Source of the DNA: Candidatus Borrarchaeum yapensis
GTDB lineage: Archaea; Asgardarchaeota; Sifarchaeia; Borrarchaeales; Borrarchaeaceae
Reading direction: 5' to 3'
Length of the DNA: 64,000 nt
Assembly: GCA_016840515.1 (NCBI GenBank)
Contig: JAEOSF010000010.1
Span: 1 to 64,000, forward strand
The notes under the pieces are model-generated. The model saw only the letters and a list, made by a program, of their open reading frames with translations, was not told the DNA's origin and ran no database searches. A program made the position numbers and the translations under genes. The first letter of the stretch is position 1. Each line of letters opens with the position of its first letter. This document shows, in pieces, positions 10,625 to 36,672 of this stretch.

Positions 10625-11764
10625 TTAGAAGCATCGATGGATAGCAGCGGCGCCCATATCTTGGTATTCTTTTTTAGTCACCCACATTTTCTGGAAGGTC
10701 TTAAGTGACGATAGAATACTACCTCCGATCCAGACACTGTAGCGTCTTTCTGGTGGGGCGATGATTTTAATCTCCACGCCTTCGGGTACCAGTTCGGTGA
10801 GTTCCTTGTGCATCCGTTCCTTGAGACCGGGGAACATAGTGGAACCGCCTGACAGTACGATGTTACCGTAGAGTTCGCGGCGCAAGTCGACGTCACATTT
10901 CATGATGGCTTGGTAGATGGCTTCGTCAATTGGTGAAGCTTCTAAGCCGATCACACCTGGGTTGAAGAATACTTCGGGGGCTAAGAAACGTTCAGGACCG
11001 ACCACTAAGGCCTGGCCATCTGGTAAGGTGTAGGTCTTTTCCATACCGGAGACTTTCTCCGCTAATTTCATTTCCTTTTCTGGGTCCAAGGCCACGTAAC
11101 ACAGTTTTTCTTTGATGTCACGTACGATCTCACGTTCGGCAGATGAGGTCAGTGAATAGCCTCGCTGTCTTAACAGTCGTCGCAGATACTCGGTGAGGTC
11201 TCGACCGGCTAAATCGACACGAGAGATGGCATGAGTGATGGCGAACCCTTCGTAGATGGGCACGATGTGTGTCACTCCGTCACCGCTGTCGACTACGATA
11301 CCGGTGGTTCTTCCGCTGGCATACAGACTTAATACTGCCTGCATGCTGACATACATGGCGGGTACGTTAAAGGTCTCAAACATGACTTCGGTCATTTTCT
11401 CCCGGTTGACTTTCGGATTCAGGGGGGCTTCGGTCAGCAGTACTGGATGTTCGTTAGGGTTAACGCGCAGGTCGTTATAGAAAGTGTAGTGCCAGATTTT
11501 TTCCATGGCATCCCAGTCGTTAATTACCCCATGTTCAACTGGGTAGATGAGTTTTAATACACCTCGCAAGTTGAGGGCTTCTTCGCCGATATAGTACTCC
11601 CGTACGTAATGTTCGACATCGGTCATGATGGATTTATATTTTGGGTAGCCAATGAGCGTTGGGAAGACACTCCTGGGCTGATCTTCGCCAGCGTAGCCGT
11701 TTTTAGACAGACCAGTCCCGTTATCAATCACCAACGGCTTTCCAGTAATTCCTTCTTCTTCCAA
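10625..11764 (-). CDS. Asgard actin (lokiactin-type)
   Basis: 379 residues, the length of eukaryotic actin. Phosphate-1 loop is [20 protein letters not shown], phosphate-2 [12 protein letters not shown], adenosine motif [11 protein letters not shown], and the C-terminus [16 protein letters not shown] parallels actin's KQEYDESGPSIVHRKCF. Polymerising cytoskeletal ATPase of the cytoplasm. A ribosome site AAGGAGG lies just before the ATG. The coding DNA is clearly richer in G+C than its neighbours (by eye about half), which fits codon selection in an abundant protein or a different history. No profilin or gelsolin gene is in the window. Confidence 0.95.
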
Positions 11765-14297: not shown

Positions 14298-14828
14298 ATG
14301 CATCTTTTATTCAAAGTGATTATTGTTGGTGATGGTGCTGTAGGAAAAACAACTTTGGCAACTCACTTCGCATATGGTAAATTCATCGAGTATTACAAAA
14401 TGACTATAGGTGTAGATTTCTTTGTTAAAGATGTTTTAATCGGAAATAATGTGATTAAACTGCAAATCTGGGACACCGCTGGCCAAGAACGTTTCGCATT
14501 CATTCGTCCAACTTATTATTCTGGGACAAGTGGAGGACTCATGGTATTTGATGTAAATCGGAGCGAATCCTTTAAAAGTCTTGATAAGTGGTTGAAAGAG
14601 GTCCACACGAATTGTGGAAAGATTCCACTTATTTTATTAGGCAATAAAATTGACTTAGATATACGACAAGTAAAAAAATCACAAGCTGAAAAATATGCCA
14701 AGAAAAATGATCTCCTATATTACGAAATATCCGCAAAAACAGGTGAAAAAGTCTTTGACGTATTTTCTGAATTAGCTAACATTTTATACACCAGATACAA
14801 AGAAAAAATTAAGGAAAAGTCAAGTTAA
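14298..14828 (+). CDS. Rab/Ras-like small GTPase
   Basis: 176 residues, a single G domain. G1 GDGAVGKT (11-18), G2 Thr36 in KMTIGVDFF, G3 WDTAGQERF with catalytic Gln63, G4 NKID (116-119), G5 SAK (145-147). This is the canonical Ras-superfamily set, closest in appearance to Rab. The C-terminus (KEKIKEKSS) has no cysteine, so it is not prenylated in the eukaryotic manner. Ribosome site GAGGGGATG just upstream of ATG 14298. It differs from the two DFGGE GTPases at 33-35 kb, having normal catalytic residues. No obvious GAP or GEF next to it; KaiC-like ATPases follow downstream. Confidence 0.93.
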   Translation: MHLLFKVIIVGDGAVGKTTLATHFAYGKFIEYYKMTIGVDFFVKDVLIGNNVIKLQIWDTAGQERFAFIRPTYYSGTSGGLMVFDVNRSESFKSLDKWLKEVHTNCGKIPLILLGNKIDLDIRQVKKSQAEKYAKKNDLLYYEISAKTGEKVFDVFSELANILYTRYKEKIKEKSS

Positions 14829-32275: not shown

Positions 32276-33010
32276 CTAACTCTCAACCTCTATTATCTGG
32301 AACATATCTTCTGGGAGTTCTAATCTTGCAATTTCCCCCCATCGATTAACCATTTCAATGCCTAGTTTTCGTGATGTTTCGAGAGCTTCGATCTTGTTAA
32401 CTCGGTAAAAACCAGTTTTGATGTGATCAAAGAATGTCTGATATATCTTTTTCAAATCATTTTCCTTGATCTCTTGAAGGTCTTCATCTTGAAAAGTCGT
32501 TGCAATTAGACTGTTTGTCTTATCTAAAAATACAAATTTTTCATATAGAGGATCCACGTTTCTTAAGTTATGCAAAATCTTGCTCAAGATTGGATTAACT
32601 CTTTTGCTAGCTAGAAACGTAATTAATGTTGAATTCACTCTTTTATTTGCTGGAATGTTTCTCGTTTTAAATTGGAAGATATATTCGTTAATGAGCCACT
32701 CGTAGAATGATTTAATTTCTTTCTTCAACTTTAACTCTTCCGCAAAACCTGACATTTTCCCCTTTTTCATAAATTCTATAGAAATACCATCCGTAAAAAT
32801 TACTTTTGAGCCTTCCGTTCCTCTGTGGGCGAGATCCTCATCAAAATAAGAAAGTACTGCGTGAATTTCTTTATTATCAGCACTCTTATGAAGGAATATC
32901 CCGGAATATAGATCGCTACTCTTGCGTAGAAGTTGTTCTTTTGTAAAGCAATATGAAATGTTTTTCTTGCATATTTCACAATAATCAATAAATGCATGTT
33001 CCTTAGACAT
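32276..33010 (-). CDS. GTPase-cassette partner protein A (CxxC N-terminus), unrecognised
   Basis: 244 residues. N-terminal IDYCEICKKNISYCF (Cys11, Cys14) suggests half of a zinc site, followed by LYSGIFLHKS, HAVLSYFDEDLAHRGTEGSK and a helical C-terminal half (YEWLINEYIFQFKTRN and TSRKLGIEMVNRWGEIARLE). It is paralogous to the gene at 33856-34536. Its ATG overlaps the last eight bases of the upstream GTPase gene, so the two are made in a coupled way. No family is recognised; it is probably the effector, GAP or GEF of the GTPase. Confidence 0.7.
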   Translation of the reverse strand: MSKEHAFIDYCEICKKNISYCFTKEQLLRKSSDLYSGIFLHKSADNKEIHAVLSYFDEDLAHRGTEGSKVIFTDGISIEFMKKGKMSGFAEELKLKKEIKSFYEWLINEYIFQFKTRNIPANKRVNSTLITFLASKRVNPILSKILHNLRNVDPLYEKFVFLDKTNSLIATTFQDEDLQEIKENDLKKIYQTFFDHIKTGFYRVNKIEALETSRKLGIEMVNRWGEIARLELPEDMFQIIEVES

Positions 33011-33566
33011 TTAGTTGTATCACCCTAGCGTAAAGTAAATCAGAAAGAGCAGCAAATACGATTTCTATATTTTCACCGGTTTTAGAACTTGTTTTAAAAA
33101 AAATCTCAGGCGGTAATTCGTTTTTTTTCAAAAAGTCTTCGATCTTTACATCAGTCACCGCCTCTCTGCCAGCTTCCCTAAGTTTATCCGCCTTTGTGCC
33201 AATCACTAAAACTATTGGATTCCCATTGGTGTTCTTATAGACCAAATCAAACCAATCACTCAGATTCACTAATGTTGAATTTCGTGTAAGATCAAAGGCA
33301 AATATGACTGCATGAGCCCCGTGGCAATAACTGGGTAAGATGAATCGAAATCGTGATTCCCCCCCGAAATCCCATATCTGAAGTTTAATGATAATATCTG
33401 CTTCTACTTTATTATGGAAAGAATAAAATCCTGCACCAATCGTGATTTTTGTATCTTTGTCATATTTGTTTGTTGCATATCTATTTATGAACGTCGTTTT
33501 CCCGACGCCACCTTCCCCCACCACGATCACTTTGAAGATATAGCTTGATTTTGACGAATCCATCAC
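33003..33566 (-). CDS. Divergent small GTPase A (DFGGE/TKAD type)
   Basis: 187 residues. G1 GEGGVGKT (17-24), G2 Thr42 in KITIGAGFY, G3 WDFGGE (Asp66-Glu70), G4 TKAD (124-127), G5 SSKTG. Relative to Ras, the DxxGQ Gln61 is Glu70 and the NKxD Asn is Thr, as in some Arf/Rag-like proteins, so hydrolysis chemistry and nucleotide specificity may differ. No lipidation Cys at the C-terminus (ends VIQLNV). First gene of the cassette, followed with an eight-base overlap by its partner. An upstream element near 33659 resembles that of the second cassette. Confidence 0.85.
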   Translation of the reverse strand: MMDSSKSSYIFKVIVVGEGGVGKTTFINRYATNKYDKDTKITIGAGFYSFHNKVEADIIIKLQIWDFGGESRFRFILPSYCHGAHAVIFAFDLTRNSTLVNLSDWFDLVYKNTNGNPIVLVIGTKADKLREAGREAVTDVKIEDFLKKNELPPEIFFKTSSKTGENIEIVFAALSDLLYARVIQLNV

Positions 33567-33658
33567 AAATCGACCATTTTGATACTTAGTACAATCACTT
33601 CATTCTAATACTAAAATATTTGGTTAATTTCAAATCGCGTTTTCAACCTTTTTATTAA

Positions 33659-33682
33659 TTCAGGTAAATCTCCACTAGGTAT
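33659..33682 (+). promoter_or_regulatory. Repeated upstream motif, copy 1
   Basis: TTCAGGTAAATCTCCACTAG begins 93 bases before the start of GTPase A. It matches the two copies before GTPase B in the TTCAGGTAAA part and in CTCC. Copies only near these cassettes suggest an operator or a remnant of the duplicated promoter. Confidence 0.4.
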
Positions 33683-33805
33683 TAAAATGATAAAATTAGA
33701 GACATTTCTATTTGTGGAAAGCATTTAAGGGCATTAACTAAAAAATATGAATATCAAAAAAATGGGATCTCTAGAAGCTTTTAGTTGCAAAACTTACAGA
33801 CAACT

Positions 33806-33845
33806 AAGCAAGAAAGCACCACAGCTTCAGCGTGAGGTAGTTCAC
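33806..33845 (+). mobile_element. IS605-like end hairpin relic
   Basis: AAGAAAGCACCACAGCTTCA, GCGTGAGG and TAGTTCAC: a stem (CACCACAGCT with AGCGTGAGG, imperfect) between a GCAAGAAAGC lead and a TTCAC end, matching the TnpB omega RNA 3' end at 46943-46980 (GAAGCAGGAAGCCTC...CACGAGGAACTCAC). It lies 11 bases beyond the stop of partner B (33856). Confidence 0.55.
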
Positions 33846-33855
33846 AATACCGCAG

Positions 33856-34536
33856 CTAATGAGTTTCTAAGATTTGGAGTACATCTTCAGAGAGCCCTAA
33901 TTTTACAATTTCTCTCCATTGTGTAATGACTTTGAGCCCAATTTTCCTTGATGCATCAAGAGCATCATTCTCGTTCTCATCCTTAAAATATTCGATAATC
34001 TGCTCAAAGATAGTCTGAAAGGCTTCTTTGAGTTCGTCATAAGAGATTTTACTGACGTCCCTTTTTTGCGAATCGAACGTAATCTTGTCAGAAACTATCA
34101 TAAACGGTTCGTATAATTCAGATTGAGTTTTTAAATCGGCTAAAATCTTATTTATTGTAGGCTCAACTCTTCTTCTTGCTAATAACCTCATATTTTTAAA
34201 ACTGGTAATGTATTCGTTGATTAACCATTCGTAGAAGAGTTTGCTTTCTAGCTTATTTACTTCGTCATCTAGATGTTTTTTATCGTTCTTTTTCAGAGGT
34301 TCTAGTGAAACACCGTTTGTTAGAATTACTTTTGACCCCTCTCCTCCTCTATTGGCAAGATTAGTGTCGAAGTAAGCAAGCATAGCATGAACTTCTTGGT
34401 TATTTTTACTCTTATGTAAAAATATTCCTGAATATAGACCGCCGCCTTTTTTTTCTAGCATATCTTTTTTAAAATGATGTGTAACTGAAATACCACATTT
34501 CTCACAGTATTCTATAAAAGAATGATCGTCAGCCAT
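33856..34536 (-). CDS. GTPase-cassette partner protein B (CxxC N-terminus), unrecognised
   Basis: 226 residues, paralogue of the 32276-33010 product. Shared landmarks: FIEYCEKCG (Cys11, Cys14), LYSGIFLHKS, HAMLAYFDTNLANRGGEGSK, FYEWLINEYITSFK and SRKIGLKVITQWREIVKLGL. Its ATG overlaps the GTPase B stop by one base (TAATG). The conserved LYSGIFLHKS-HAxLxYFD block is probably the core of a new domain. Function unknown; coupled expression argues for a complex with the GTPase. Confidence 0.7.
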   Translation of the reverse strand: MADDHSFIEYCEKCGISVTHHFKKDMLEKKGGGLYSGIFLHKSKNNQEVHAMLAYFDTNLANRGGEGSKVILTNGVSLEPLKKNDKKHLDDEVNKLESKLFYEWLINEYITSFKNMRLLARRRVEPTINKILADLKTQSELYEPFMIVSDKITFDSQKRDVSKISYDELKEAFQTIFEQIIEYFKDENENDALDASRKIGLKVITQWREIVKLGLSEDVLQILETH

Positions 34537-35099
34537 TATTTTTTCACCTTTTTGTAGAGTAAATTGGACATTTCGGAAAATACGTCTTTGACATTTTGAC
34601 CTGTTTTTGAACTCGTCTTAAAAAACAAATTTGACAAAAAATTGTGTGTTTTCATGAATTCTTCAATCTGTTCTTCTTTGATTGCCTCAATACCATTGTC
34701 TTCGATTTGATCTGCTTTTGTACCGATGAGTATAAATATTGGGCTATTTTCAGTATTTTCTTTAATTAAATCAAGCCATTCTGAGAGATTCCATAATGTT
34801 GAAGCTCTTGAAAGGTCAAAAGCAAATATGACCCCATGAGCACCGTGGCAATAACTAGGCAAAATAAATCGGAAACGCTTTTCTCCGCCAAAATCCCATA
34901 CCTGAAGCTTTACGGAAGTATCTCCGCCATTTACGTTATTTTCAAAGGAATGAAAAGAGGCTCCGATTGTAATTCTCGTATCTTCAGAAAAACTGTTTGT
35001 AGCAAATCGGTTAATGAATGTTGTTTTCCCGATGCCACCTTCTCCAACAACAACCACTTTAAATAAATAATTATAACTCACCTGATTATGAGCTACCAA
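34536..35099 (-). CDS. Divergent small GTPase B (DFGGE/TKAD type)
   Basis: 187 residues, closely similar to GTPase A: G1 GEGGIGKT (19-26), G2 in RITIGASFH, G3 WDFGGE (Asp69-Glu73), G4 TKAD (127-130), SSKTG. Gln61 is again Glu. A conserved RFILPSYCHGAHGVIFAFDL segment after switch II is shared by both GTPases and could be the partner-binding face. C-terminus KKVKK is basic and could contact membrane. Divergent from an eight-helix membrane protein gene across 277 bases that carry two copies of a repeated motif. Confidence 0.87.
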   Translation of the reverse strand: MVAHNQVSYNYLFKVVVVGEGGIGKTTFINRFATNSFSEDTRITIGASFHSFENNVNGGDTSVKLQVWDFGGEKRFRFILPSYCHGAHGVIFAFDLSRASTLWNLSEWLDLIKENTENSPIFILIGTKADQIEDNGIEAIKEEQIEEFMKTHNFLSNLFFKTSSKTGQNVKDVFSEMSNLLYKKVKK

Positions 35100-35174: not shown

Positions 35175-35251
35175 TTCAGGTAAAACTTTCCGCAGTATTT
35201 TCGGTTAGATAAAACATTTGTTTAAGTTTCAGGTAAAATTCTCCGCAATAA
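35175..35251 (+). promoter_or_regulatory. Repeated upstream motif, copies 2 and 3
   Basis: TTCAGGTAAAACTTTCCGCA (35175) and TTCAGGTAAAATTCTCCGCA (35228) are near-identical 24-base direct repeats 53 bases apart in the divergent promoter between GTPase B and the membrane protein. A weaker copy lies before GTPase A at 33659. Likely binding sites for one regulator. Confidence 0.5.
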
Positions 35252-35376
35252 TTCCTTTTTAAAAGCATTCGAAGTTGTTCATGTCTCTATTTGTTGTGGA
35301 AGAAGTTTTCCACAAAATATATAAAATATTTTTGAATGGATTCTTTAAAAAAAGTTTAATTAGGGGCAAGAAAACG

Positions 35377-36162
35377 ATGTCTGAAGCAATTAAATTCGTC
35401 AGAAATAATCTAACGTATACCATTAGCATGATAGGCTTATTTGCCTTATGTGCGTATGTGTTAGCGTATAAGCCACATTTAGGTGGTTTAGATGTTTTGA
35501 AATCAACATTTTTCTTATTTGGGTTGTCGTTAGATACAGTGATACTATTGTGGGCAATCAGCTTCTTTCTCTTGTACAGATGGTACTATACTGGTAGGCA
35601 AAGTATTTCTACATTAGCTTGGGGACTCTCCTTTCTGGTATATAGCATTGTATTCATTGGATTATGTCTACAAGCGCTGGGTATTGGATGGGCCAATTCA
35701 AATGATCCGGTAATATTCTTCATTTTTCGGAATGTAATGATCTTGTGGGCCGCTGGAATGTGGTTTGGAATTTCTAACATATTAACTGGAAATAAAGTGA
35801 TCAGATACGGACTAACAGGTCTTATAGTTATAGCTTCCTATATTTGGTTTGCATATGGGCTTCTTGTTTTGGCAGACATTGAATATACAATGTATGGCTT
35901 TCTCTTTGCTGTCTGGATTCCAATTAGTGTAACTCTAGGTTATGCTTTCTATCTCTATGGAACTAATACAGGTTTGAGTTCACCAAAATTCCTGACGGTT
36001 GGTTTCGTCCTTCTAGCGATTACTTATATGGCTTGGGCTCCTTGGCATTTTCCTGACGTAAGTTATATCTACTTTATCTGGTTCTTTCTCTTTGAAATTT
36101 CACTAGTACCCATATTAATCGGATTCATCTTGATTCCAGTTGAAAGAGAAATTCGAAGATGA
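35377..36162 (+). CDS. Eight-helix integral membrane protein
   Basis: 261 residues from ATG 35377, preceded by AGGGGC; the open frame continues upstream but that part is not membrane-like. About eight hydrophobic helices (roughly 12-30, 48-68, 82-104, 112-130, 138-160, 166-188, 203-221, 230-253), short loops, charged ends (MSEAIKFVRNN and PVEREIRR). The aromatic-rich helices resemble seven/eight-helix sensor or transporter families, but no family is certain. Divergent from GTPase B and followed by a longin-like protein on the same strand, so it may be the membrane part of the same signalling island. Confidence 0.65.
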   Translation: MSEAIKFVRNNLTYTISMIGLFALCAYVLAYKPHLGGLDVLKSTFFLFGLSLDTVILLWAISFFLLYRWYYTGRQSISTLAWGLSFLVYSIVFIGLCLQALGIGWANSNDPVIFFIFRNVMILWAAGMWFGISNILTGNKVIRYGLTGLIVIASYIWFAYGLLVLADIEYTMYGFLFAVWIPISVTLGYAFYLYGTNTGLSSPKFLTVGFVLLAITYMAWAPWHFPDVSYIYFIWFFLFEISLVPILIGFILIPVEREIRR

Positions 36163-36237
36163 AAACTTTAAAAACCAGTTTTTTTTAATTATATTATTTA
36201 CACTTTAATGGAGGAAAAAATCGCGAGAGGCTCTTAG

Positions 36238-36672
36238 ATGATCCAAAATTTCTTCTTACTCAACAAAAGCGGAATGTGTTATCTCTCAAGAAATTATTCT
36301 GCTTTAGAATTCGATGAGGCGCTGATTGGAGGCTTTTTGGCAGCTATAGAGTCTTTTGGCACGAAAGTATTCAAGGAAGGTACAATTAGTGAAATAGATT
36401 ATGGTAATTTTAAGTTCGTGTACACTTATGAGAAGGAATTAATTGCAGTAGCTATTGTTGATGACAATATAGACACAGAACCAGTCAGGAAAGGTTTATC
36501 CGAACTCATCCATGAATTTATAAGGGCATATAACATAGAGCGGCTTGCAGAGGGGAATCTGTCGGGTTTAGAAGACTTTATTCCTTATATTGATATGAAA
36601 CTCCAAAGTCCAAAAAAGAAGGAAAAAGAAGATTTGGTCAGCAAAATGGATAAATGGGTAGATTCTTTCTAG
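36238..36672 (+). CDS. Longin-like domain protein
   Basis: 144 residues. The start MIQNFFLLNKSGMCYLSRNY followed by a helix (LIGGFLAAIESFGTKVF), three strands (ISEIDYGNFKFVYTYEKELI and VAIVDDN) and a long helix (VRKGLSELIHEFIRAYNIER) fits the longin/roadblock-like fold seen in SNAREs, AP sigma subunits and Mon1-Ccz1-type GTPase regulators. The C-terminus is a charged coiled helix. Asgard genomes encode such proteins as candidate GTPase regulators. Fold call by eye; start ATG 36238. Confidence 0.6.
   Translation: MIQNFFLLNKSGMCYLSRNYSALEFDEALIGGFLAAIESFGTKVFKEGTISEIDYGNFKFVYTYEKELIAVAIVDDNIDTEPVRKGLSELIHEFIRAYNIERLAEGNLSGLEDFIPYIDMKLQSPKKKEKEDLVSKMDKWVDSF

What the first reader, a model, noticed from the sequence alone, without database searches (positions are those of the whole stretch)
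32276..35099. Duplicated cassette: DFGGE-type small GTPase plus coupled unknown partner
Two adjacent copies of the same two-gene unit occur: GTPase (33003-33566 and 34536-35099) and an unrecognised CxxC protein (32276-33010 and 33856-34536). Each pair overlaps (8 bases and 1 base), so translation is coupled. Both partners share LYSGIFLHKS, HAxLxYFDxxLAxRGxEGSK and FYEWLINEYI blocks, pointing to a conserved new domain. A GTPase with an obligate partner, duplicated and kept, is a candidate new regulatory system in Asgard archaea.
Basis: partly seen in the sequence, partly recalled or inferred. Interest (0 to 1): 0.85.

Follow-up and report, generated by a model that had tools for sequence, protein, structure and literature searches.

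The report
Asgard GTPase with dedicated zinc-type partner
In a little-known group of Asgard archaea (the microbes closest to eukaryotes), an undescribed, probably zinc-binding protein is always encoded directly behind a Ras/Rab-like molecular switch, and the pair has been duplicated and kept as a unit, giving a rare, directly testable switch-plus-partner pair.

Summary
Confirmed. Two tandem cassettes on the minus strand, each a Ras/Rab-like GTPase with Glu at the Ras Gln61 position (DFGGE) overlapping an unannotated partner gene by 1 or 8 bp. Order: GTPase (34536-35099), partner (33856-34536), GTPase (33003-33566), partner (32276-33010). The genome belongs to the Borrarchaeum/Sifarchaeum genus (Sifarchaeia). 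It has a third full pair and a fourth GTPase followed by a partner of only the N-terminal domain. All nine full-length partners found (5 of 228 Asgard genomes: Sifarchaeia, Jordarchaeia/Freyarchaeota) directly follow a DFGGE GTPase; junction types are conserved, and GTPase and partner trees give the same clades. Partner = N-terminal beta domain (CxxC...H...HA or HxC, predicted Zn site) plus a helical C-terminus found nowhere else. The N-domain is Asgard-wide (141/228 genomes). In three Thorarchaeia loci it directly follows a Gln61-type GTPase with other C-termini, so it is the likeliest GTPase-facing module. No Pfam, NCBIfam, PHROGs, PADLOC, PDB or Foldseek assignment. Best reading: an old, modular GTPase plus dedicated regulator/effector; binding and role are inferred. 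'Obligate' holds for the partner only: five of nine DFGGE GTPases lack it directly downstream.

The parts
34536..35099 (-). GTPase 1 (Ras/Rab-like, DFGGE at G3; TTG start with GGGGTGAT just upstream)
   Evidence: PF00071 E=2.2e-34, TIGR00231 above cut-off; orthologue in B. weybense L021 87% identical
33856..34536 (-). Partner 1, 226 aa: N-terminal CxxC/H/H beta domain (res. 5-79) + helical C-terminus (83-225); start overlaps GTPase 1 stop as TAATG
   Evidence: Homologues; AF2 model pLDDT 70, pTM 0.52; no family
34300..34518 (-). N-terminal predicted Zn domain of partner 1 (C11, C14, H41, H50)
   Evidence: Profile A3 E=1.1e-37 at this place, 141/228 Asgard genomes; ligand alternation H...H versus HxC
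33859..34278 (-). Helical C-terminal domain of partner 1 (FYEWLINEYI helix)
   Evidence: Profile A6: nine proteins in 5 genomes at E<=1.1e-59, nothing else below 4e-4
33003..33566 (-). GTPase 2 (DFGGE); likely start ATG 33563
   Evidence: PF00071 E=5.9e-31; nearest solved structures are Rab14/Rab11
32276..33010 (-). Partner 2, 244 aa, overlaps GTPase 2 by 8 bp (ATGTCTAA)
   Evidence: 45% identical to partner 1; AF2 pLDDT 69, pTM 0.57 with the same strand/helix pattern
33567..33855 (-). 289-bp intergenic stretch between the cassettes (upstream region of GTPase 2), with a degenerate copy of the GGAGATTTACCTGA motif at 33659-33675
   Evidence: corresponding 271-bp gap in L021
35179..35246 (-). 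Upstream region of GTPase 1 with two copies of GCGGARARTTTTACC (35232-35246, 35179-35193)
   Evidence: 8 matches genome-wide with <=1 mismatch against 0 for the reversed control; two more upstream of another DFGGE GTPase at C69

Best explanation
Each cassette encodes a small GTPase of a distinct Asgard Rab-like subclade (Glu in place of the catalytic Gln) and a dedicated protein partner encoded in the same overlapping gene pair. The partner's N-terminal predicted zinc-binding beta domain is the conserved GTPase-facing module and is predicted to bind the GTPase, most likely through the near-invariant switch II region (DFGGExRFRFILPxYCxGAH). The helical C-terminus is the specific output or oligomerisation part in the Sifarchaeia/Jordarchaeia version. 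The pair was duplicated as a unit before the sampled Sifarchaeia diverged, so the cell carries several separate GTPase/partner channels, like paralogous Rab/regulator pairs. Shown: gene architecture, conservation, co-inheritance, purifying selection, modularity. Inferred: co-translation, physical binding, zinc binding, which domain binds, and whether the partner is a GAP, a GEF or an effector.
For: All nine full-length partners and both short partners lie directly after a DFGGE GTPase (gaps -8, -1 or +10 bp; the GGTGA/GGCGA...TAATG junction is kept between Sifarchaeia and Jordarchaeia). In the own genome 4 of 4 strong N-domain genes follow one of 26 GTPases; random expectation about 4e-9 (assuming about 3,300 genes). 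GTPase and partner trees give the same clades. The short partner (C63, N-domain only) and three Thorarchaeia loci (L052, L053, L055: N-domain with other C-termini, GTPase directly upstream) share only the N-domain. 5 of 25 other N-domain loci follow a GTPase, p about 3e-6 uncorrected for relatedness, 9e-5 if counted as 3 of 10 groups. Zn site: two Cys and first His conserved, fourth ligand either a second His (26 sequences) or HxC (9), one with both (one row re-read by eye). dN/dS 0.13-0.20.
Against: No complex prediction was possible, and no fold match was found for either model, so binding is not shown. Many N-domain proteins are not next to a GTPase (20 of the 25 other loci), so the domain may have a general role. 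The DFGGE GTPases at C69, C40 and C56 (two) have no partner directly downstream. Models are of medium confidence (pLDDT 69-70).
Confidence: 0.68

Rival explanations
1. The partner is specifically a GAP/GEF-type regulator: the N-domain supplies or positions a catalytic residue (the invariant Arg of DxxLxxRG) for a GTPase lacking Gln61.
For: Asp and Arg are invariant in all 16 diverse N-domains; the DFGGE GTPases lack the catalytic Gln; the minimal partner is the N-domain alone.
Against: Thorarchaeia GTPases linked to the same domain keep GGQ, so the Arg is not tied to loss of Gln; the Asp/Arg pair could be a structural salt bridge; published reports on H-Ras Q61E conflict (reduced hydrolysis as reviewed in PMC6813200, increased intrinsic activity cited in PMC2987813).
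Confidence: 0.22
2. The partner is a downstream effector/adaptor that reads the GTP state and passes it on through its C-terminal module.
For: Same N-domain with different C-termini: helical (Sifarchaeia/Jordarchaeia), a short tail of about 90 residues (L052, L055), longer 270-290 aa forms (L053), a repeat-containing protein at C10.
Against: The short C63 partner has no output module; many N-domain proteins are unlinked to GTPases.
Confidence: 0.33
3. Ordinary operon neighbours: co-transcribed and co-duplicated genes without direct interaction; the N-domain is a generic small zinc domain.
For: The N-domain occurs widely without GTPases; single-domain relatives of 64-78 aa are scattered in the own genome.
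Against: The association recurs in separate loci, contexts and classes, with short-form and Thorarchaeia variants; neighbours otherwise differ between Sifarchaeia and Jordarchaeia.
Confidence: 0.2

Closest known systems
Asgard Rab-like small GTPases (e.g. Thorarchaeota Rab, PDB 7EZB; Tran et al. 2024, PMC10933270)
   Same: Single-domain Ras-superfamily GTPase, nearest solved relatives Rab14/Rab11; 7EZB also matches
   Different: Glu at the Gln61 position, GTKxD G4 motif, overlapping partner gene; that paper states that MK-D1 small GTPase genes generally do not lie in operons with roadblock, longin or TRAPPC3 genes
MglA-MglB (Ras-like GTPase with a roadblock GAP/GEF)
   Same: Prokaryotic GTPase with a dedicated regulator-like partner
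   Different: Partner here is predicted as a Zn beta domain plus helices; no roadblock pattern and no Pfam match
TRAPP core / longin and V4R-type (TRAPPC3-like) regulators
   Same: The third copy (C113) is followed by a longin-like protein and a Cys-rich V4R-like protein (both by eye), and an N-domain protein is followed by the same Cys-rich protein in Thorarchaeia (L052, L055)
   Different: The partner itself is neither longin nor V4R by any search; the V4R-like protein had no Pfam or PDB sequence match

Membership tests
Ras-superfamily small GTPase | P-loop GxGGxGKT, switch I Thr, G3 DxxG, G4 (N/T)KxD, G5 SxK | tested here: met
   Motifs in alignment A2 (GEGGVGKTT, DFGGE, GTKAD, TSSKTG) and PF00071/TIGR00231 above cut-offs
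Ras-superfamily small GTPase | Catalytic Gln at position 61 (usual, not universal in the superfamily) | tested here: not met
   Glu in all nine DFGGE GTPases of the genome; the other GTPases of the genome have Gln at this place in the listing
Eukaryotic Rab | C-terminal prenylated Cys | tested here: not met
   No Cys in the last 20 residues of any of 11 linked GTPases
Roadblock/longin regulators (MglB, TRAPP longins) | alpha/beta roadblock/longin fold | tested here: inconclusive
   Partner models show N-terminal strands then helices and Foldseek gives no roadblock/longin match, but the models are only pLDDT 69-70
Cas4 / defence nuclease | Curated Pfam/PADLOC match | tested here: not met
   Partner 2 only: Pfam E=0.0056, 17.2 bits against cut-off 22.7; PADLOC Cas4b E=0.0039; partner 1 has none
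Asgard N-domain superfamily (CxxC...H...H/C, YxDxxLxxRG) | C, C, H, Asp, Arg invariant; fourth ligand His or Cys | tested here: met
Direct GTPase-partner complex | Nucleotide-dependent or constitutive binding | not testable with these tools
   Only single-chain prediction on offer

The most novel reading that the evidence does not exclude
The CxxC/H/H domain is an Asgard-wide small-GTPase-binding domain that forms, with varied C-terminal modules, an undescribed class of GTPase regulators or effectors parallel to roadblock/longin proteins.
Probability: 0.35. Interest if true: 0.85.

Novelty: new variant of a known kind. Interest (0 to 1): 0.62.

Why it matters
Asgard genomes are full of Rab-like GTPases, but which regulator belongs to which GTPase is open; the structural study of Tran et al. 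(PMC10933270) says genome layout rarely helps. Here the layout does help: several candidate cognate pairs with built-in specificity controls (paralogous cassettes, a minimal N-domain-only partner, Thorarchaeia relatives). Binding, exchange and hydrolysis can be tested directly, and a positive result would add a partner class to the picture of GTPase control before eukaryotes arose.

Tried and rejected
Family searches of the partner (Pfam, NCBIfam, PADLOC, PHROGs) gave only sub-threshold noise (Cas4, rad18, PRMT5). PDB profile searches with full partner and N-domain: nothing significant. Foldseek of two models against PDB, and of one against viral models: no match at E<=0.001. Viral contigs: none. 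Comparison of partner-linked against unlinked DFGGE GTPases for interface residues: only Val18 and Ala139 separate the full-partner GTPases, not convincing. The upstream motif was first suspected to be a TnpB/IS605 end; genome-wide it is rare and mostly in intergenic stretches, sometimes doubled, so a regulatory element is at least as likely; not settled. A DENN-like reading of the middle part of the 565-580 aa N-domain proteins came from eye only, has no Pfam support, and is not claimed. Q61E literature is conflicting, so no rate is predicted.

Full report
What is there. On the minus strand, in transcription order: GTPase 1 (35099-34536), partner 1 (34536-33856), a 289-bp gap, GTPase 2 (33566-33003), partner 2 (33010-32276). 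The junctions are TAATG (1-bp overlap) and ATGTCTAA (8-bp overlap). A convergent UvrB-like gene (by sequence, not searched) follows; a TPR gene and, between it and the cassettes in this genome but not in B. weybense, a membrane protein and a small longin-like protein lie upstream. In Borrarchaeum weybense (L021) both cassettes sit in the same place between the TPR and UvrB-like genes. The duplicates are old: GTPases 59%, partners 45% identical. dN/dS between the two species is 0.13-0.20 for the four genes. The window's genome shares its genus label with the Borrarchaeum and Sifarchaeum genomes. It is 10% contaminated by the tool's figure, but the synteny in L021 speaks against a contaminant.

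The GTPase. It is Ras-superfamily by PF00071 and TIGR00231, nearest to Rab14/Rab11 among solved structures. All nine DFGGE GTPases of the genome have Glu where Ras has Gln61; the others listed have Gln. None of the linked GTPases has a C-terminal Cys, so no Rab-type prenylation. Switch II is nearly invariant across the DFGGE group, linked or not.

The partner. Nine full-length homologues in five of 228 Asgard genomes: three of the Sifarchaeia genus and two Jordarchaeum/Freyarchaeota. Every one starts within 8 bp of the end of a DFGGE GTPase gene. Gene trees of the two components give the same groups (upstream cassette, downstream cassette plus Sifarchaeum, C113, Freyarchaeota/Jordarchaeum, short form); deeper nodes are mostly unresolved, and I saw no strongly supported conflict. 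So the pair has been inherited and duplicated as a unit. Two AF2 models (pLDDT 70 and 69; pTM 0.52 and 0.57) agree on N-terminal strands (about 5-71) followed by helices. Neither has a fold match and no family library knows the protein.

Two parts of the partner. The helical half exists only in the nine proteins (next hit E=4.7e-4 in a frame with stops). The N-domain is widespread: a narrow profile finds it in 141 of 228 Asgard genomes, in open frames of 75 to 617 residues. Its Cys-Cys-His are invariant in the 16-row alignment. The fourth ligand is either a second His (25 rows, plus L053 which the script misparsed and I read by eye) or a Cys two after the first His (9 rows); one row has both. 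Such swapping is typical of a metal site; zinc itself is inferred.

Link to GTPases beyond the nine pairs. In the own genome all four strong N-domain genes follow a DFGGE GTPase, including a minimal partner of about 90 residues at C63. At C10 a 268-aa N-domain protein lies 295 bp upstream of another DFGGE GTPase on the same strand. Among 25 N-domain loci in other families, five directly follow a GTPase: L052, L053, L055 (family f4, Thorarchaeia by a 262-bit match of one of its GTPases to the Thorarchaeota Rab structure) and L049, L054 (150-220 bp away). Chance expectation is near 1% per gene. The Thorarchaeia linked GTPases fall on the DFGGE side of the GTPase tree, but with modest support (92/85) and a long-branch row among them; L049/L054 GTPases fall elsewhere. 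Since only the N-domain is common to all these partners, it is the best candidate for contacting the GTPase.

Mechanism. Most likely a dedicated regulatory or effector subunit made together with its GTPase, N-domain binding and C-terminal output, with paralogous pairs forming separate channels. Shown: architecture, conservation, co-inheritance, selection, modularity. Inferred: binding, zinc, role. An effector/adaptor role fits the variable C-termini; a GAP role fits the missing Gln and the invariant Arg; I cannot separate them.

Third copy. After the C113 pair (L013, L024) come a protein with a longin-like start and a C-terminal stretch YQALY.Y.E..EREK..FILDKTILR, and a Cys-rich protein (CLICPRRVGGYDLEGHTACPVGG) that looks V4R-like by eye. 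In Thorarchaeia L052 the same C-terminal stretch is fused to the N-domain after a GTPase, and in L052 and L055 the same Cys-rich protein follows (65-66% identity). Pfam and PDB profiles did not confirm V4R/TRAPP, so this is a lead only.

Verdict. Observation confirmed; interpretation partly supported. Not an artefact, and no described partner family fits; the literature searches found no description, but they cover open-licence papers only.

Noticed in passing
L013/L024 (C113) and L052/L055: Conserved gene string: GTPase, N-domain protein and/or longin-like protein ending in a shared C-terminal stretch, then a Cys-rich V4R-like protein; present in Sifarchaeia and Thorarchaeia. Possible TRAPP-like GTPase operon; fold not confirmed.
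   Followed up: partly
window 35179-35246 and 33659-33675; own genome C69, C84, C35, C45, C91: Rare motif GCGGARARTTTTACC (8 genome-wide with <=1 mismatch, 0 reversed), sometimes in pairs upstream of genes, including two DFGGE GTPase loci; possible operator or mobile-element end.
   Followed up: partly
window 33820-33853; L025 upstream of the GTPase: Sequence CTTCAGCGTGAGGTAGTTCAC between the cassettes resembles the stretch next to a TnpB-like gene in Sifarchaeum L025 (GCTTTAGCGTGAGGTAGTTCAC): possible leftover insertion-sequence end.
   Followed up: no
window 35275-36672: A membrane protein without Pfam match and a 144-aa longin-like protein (Pfam Longin E=0.03, below cut-off) lie between the TPR gene and cassette 1 here but not in B. 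weybense.
   Followed up: no
L031-L038 (family f20): Long (about 565-580 aa where complete) proteins with the N-domain near the N-terminus and a long uncharacterised remainder, several next to Mrp/MinD-like ATPase genes with ferredoxin motifs.
   Followed up: no
L057:2806-3033, L058:2533-2901, L059:2645-2839, L060:1324-1560: Small N-domain relatives of the form GGLF.K.VDHGDH...IDxxGxVRRE scattered in the own genome, apparently a further branch of the same zinc-domain superfamily.
   Followed up: partly
window 10625-11764 and 14298-14828: Actin-like gene and a further, DTAGQ-type Rab-like GTPase in the same window, typical Asgard eukaryotic-signature genes.
   Followed up: no
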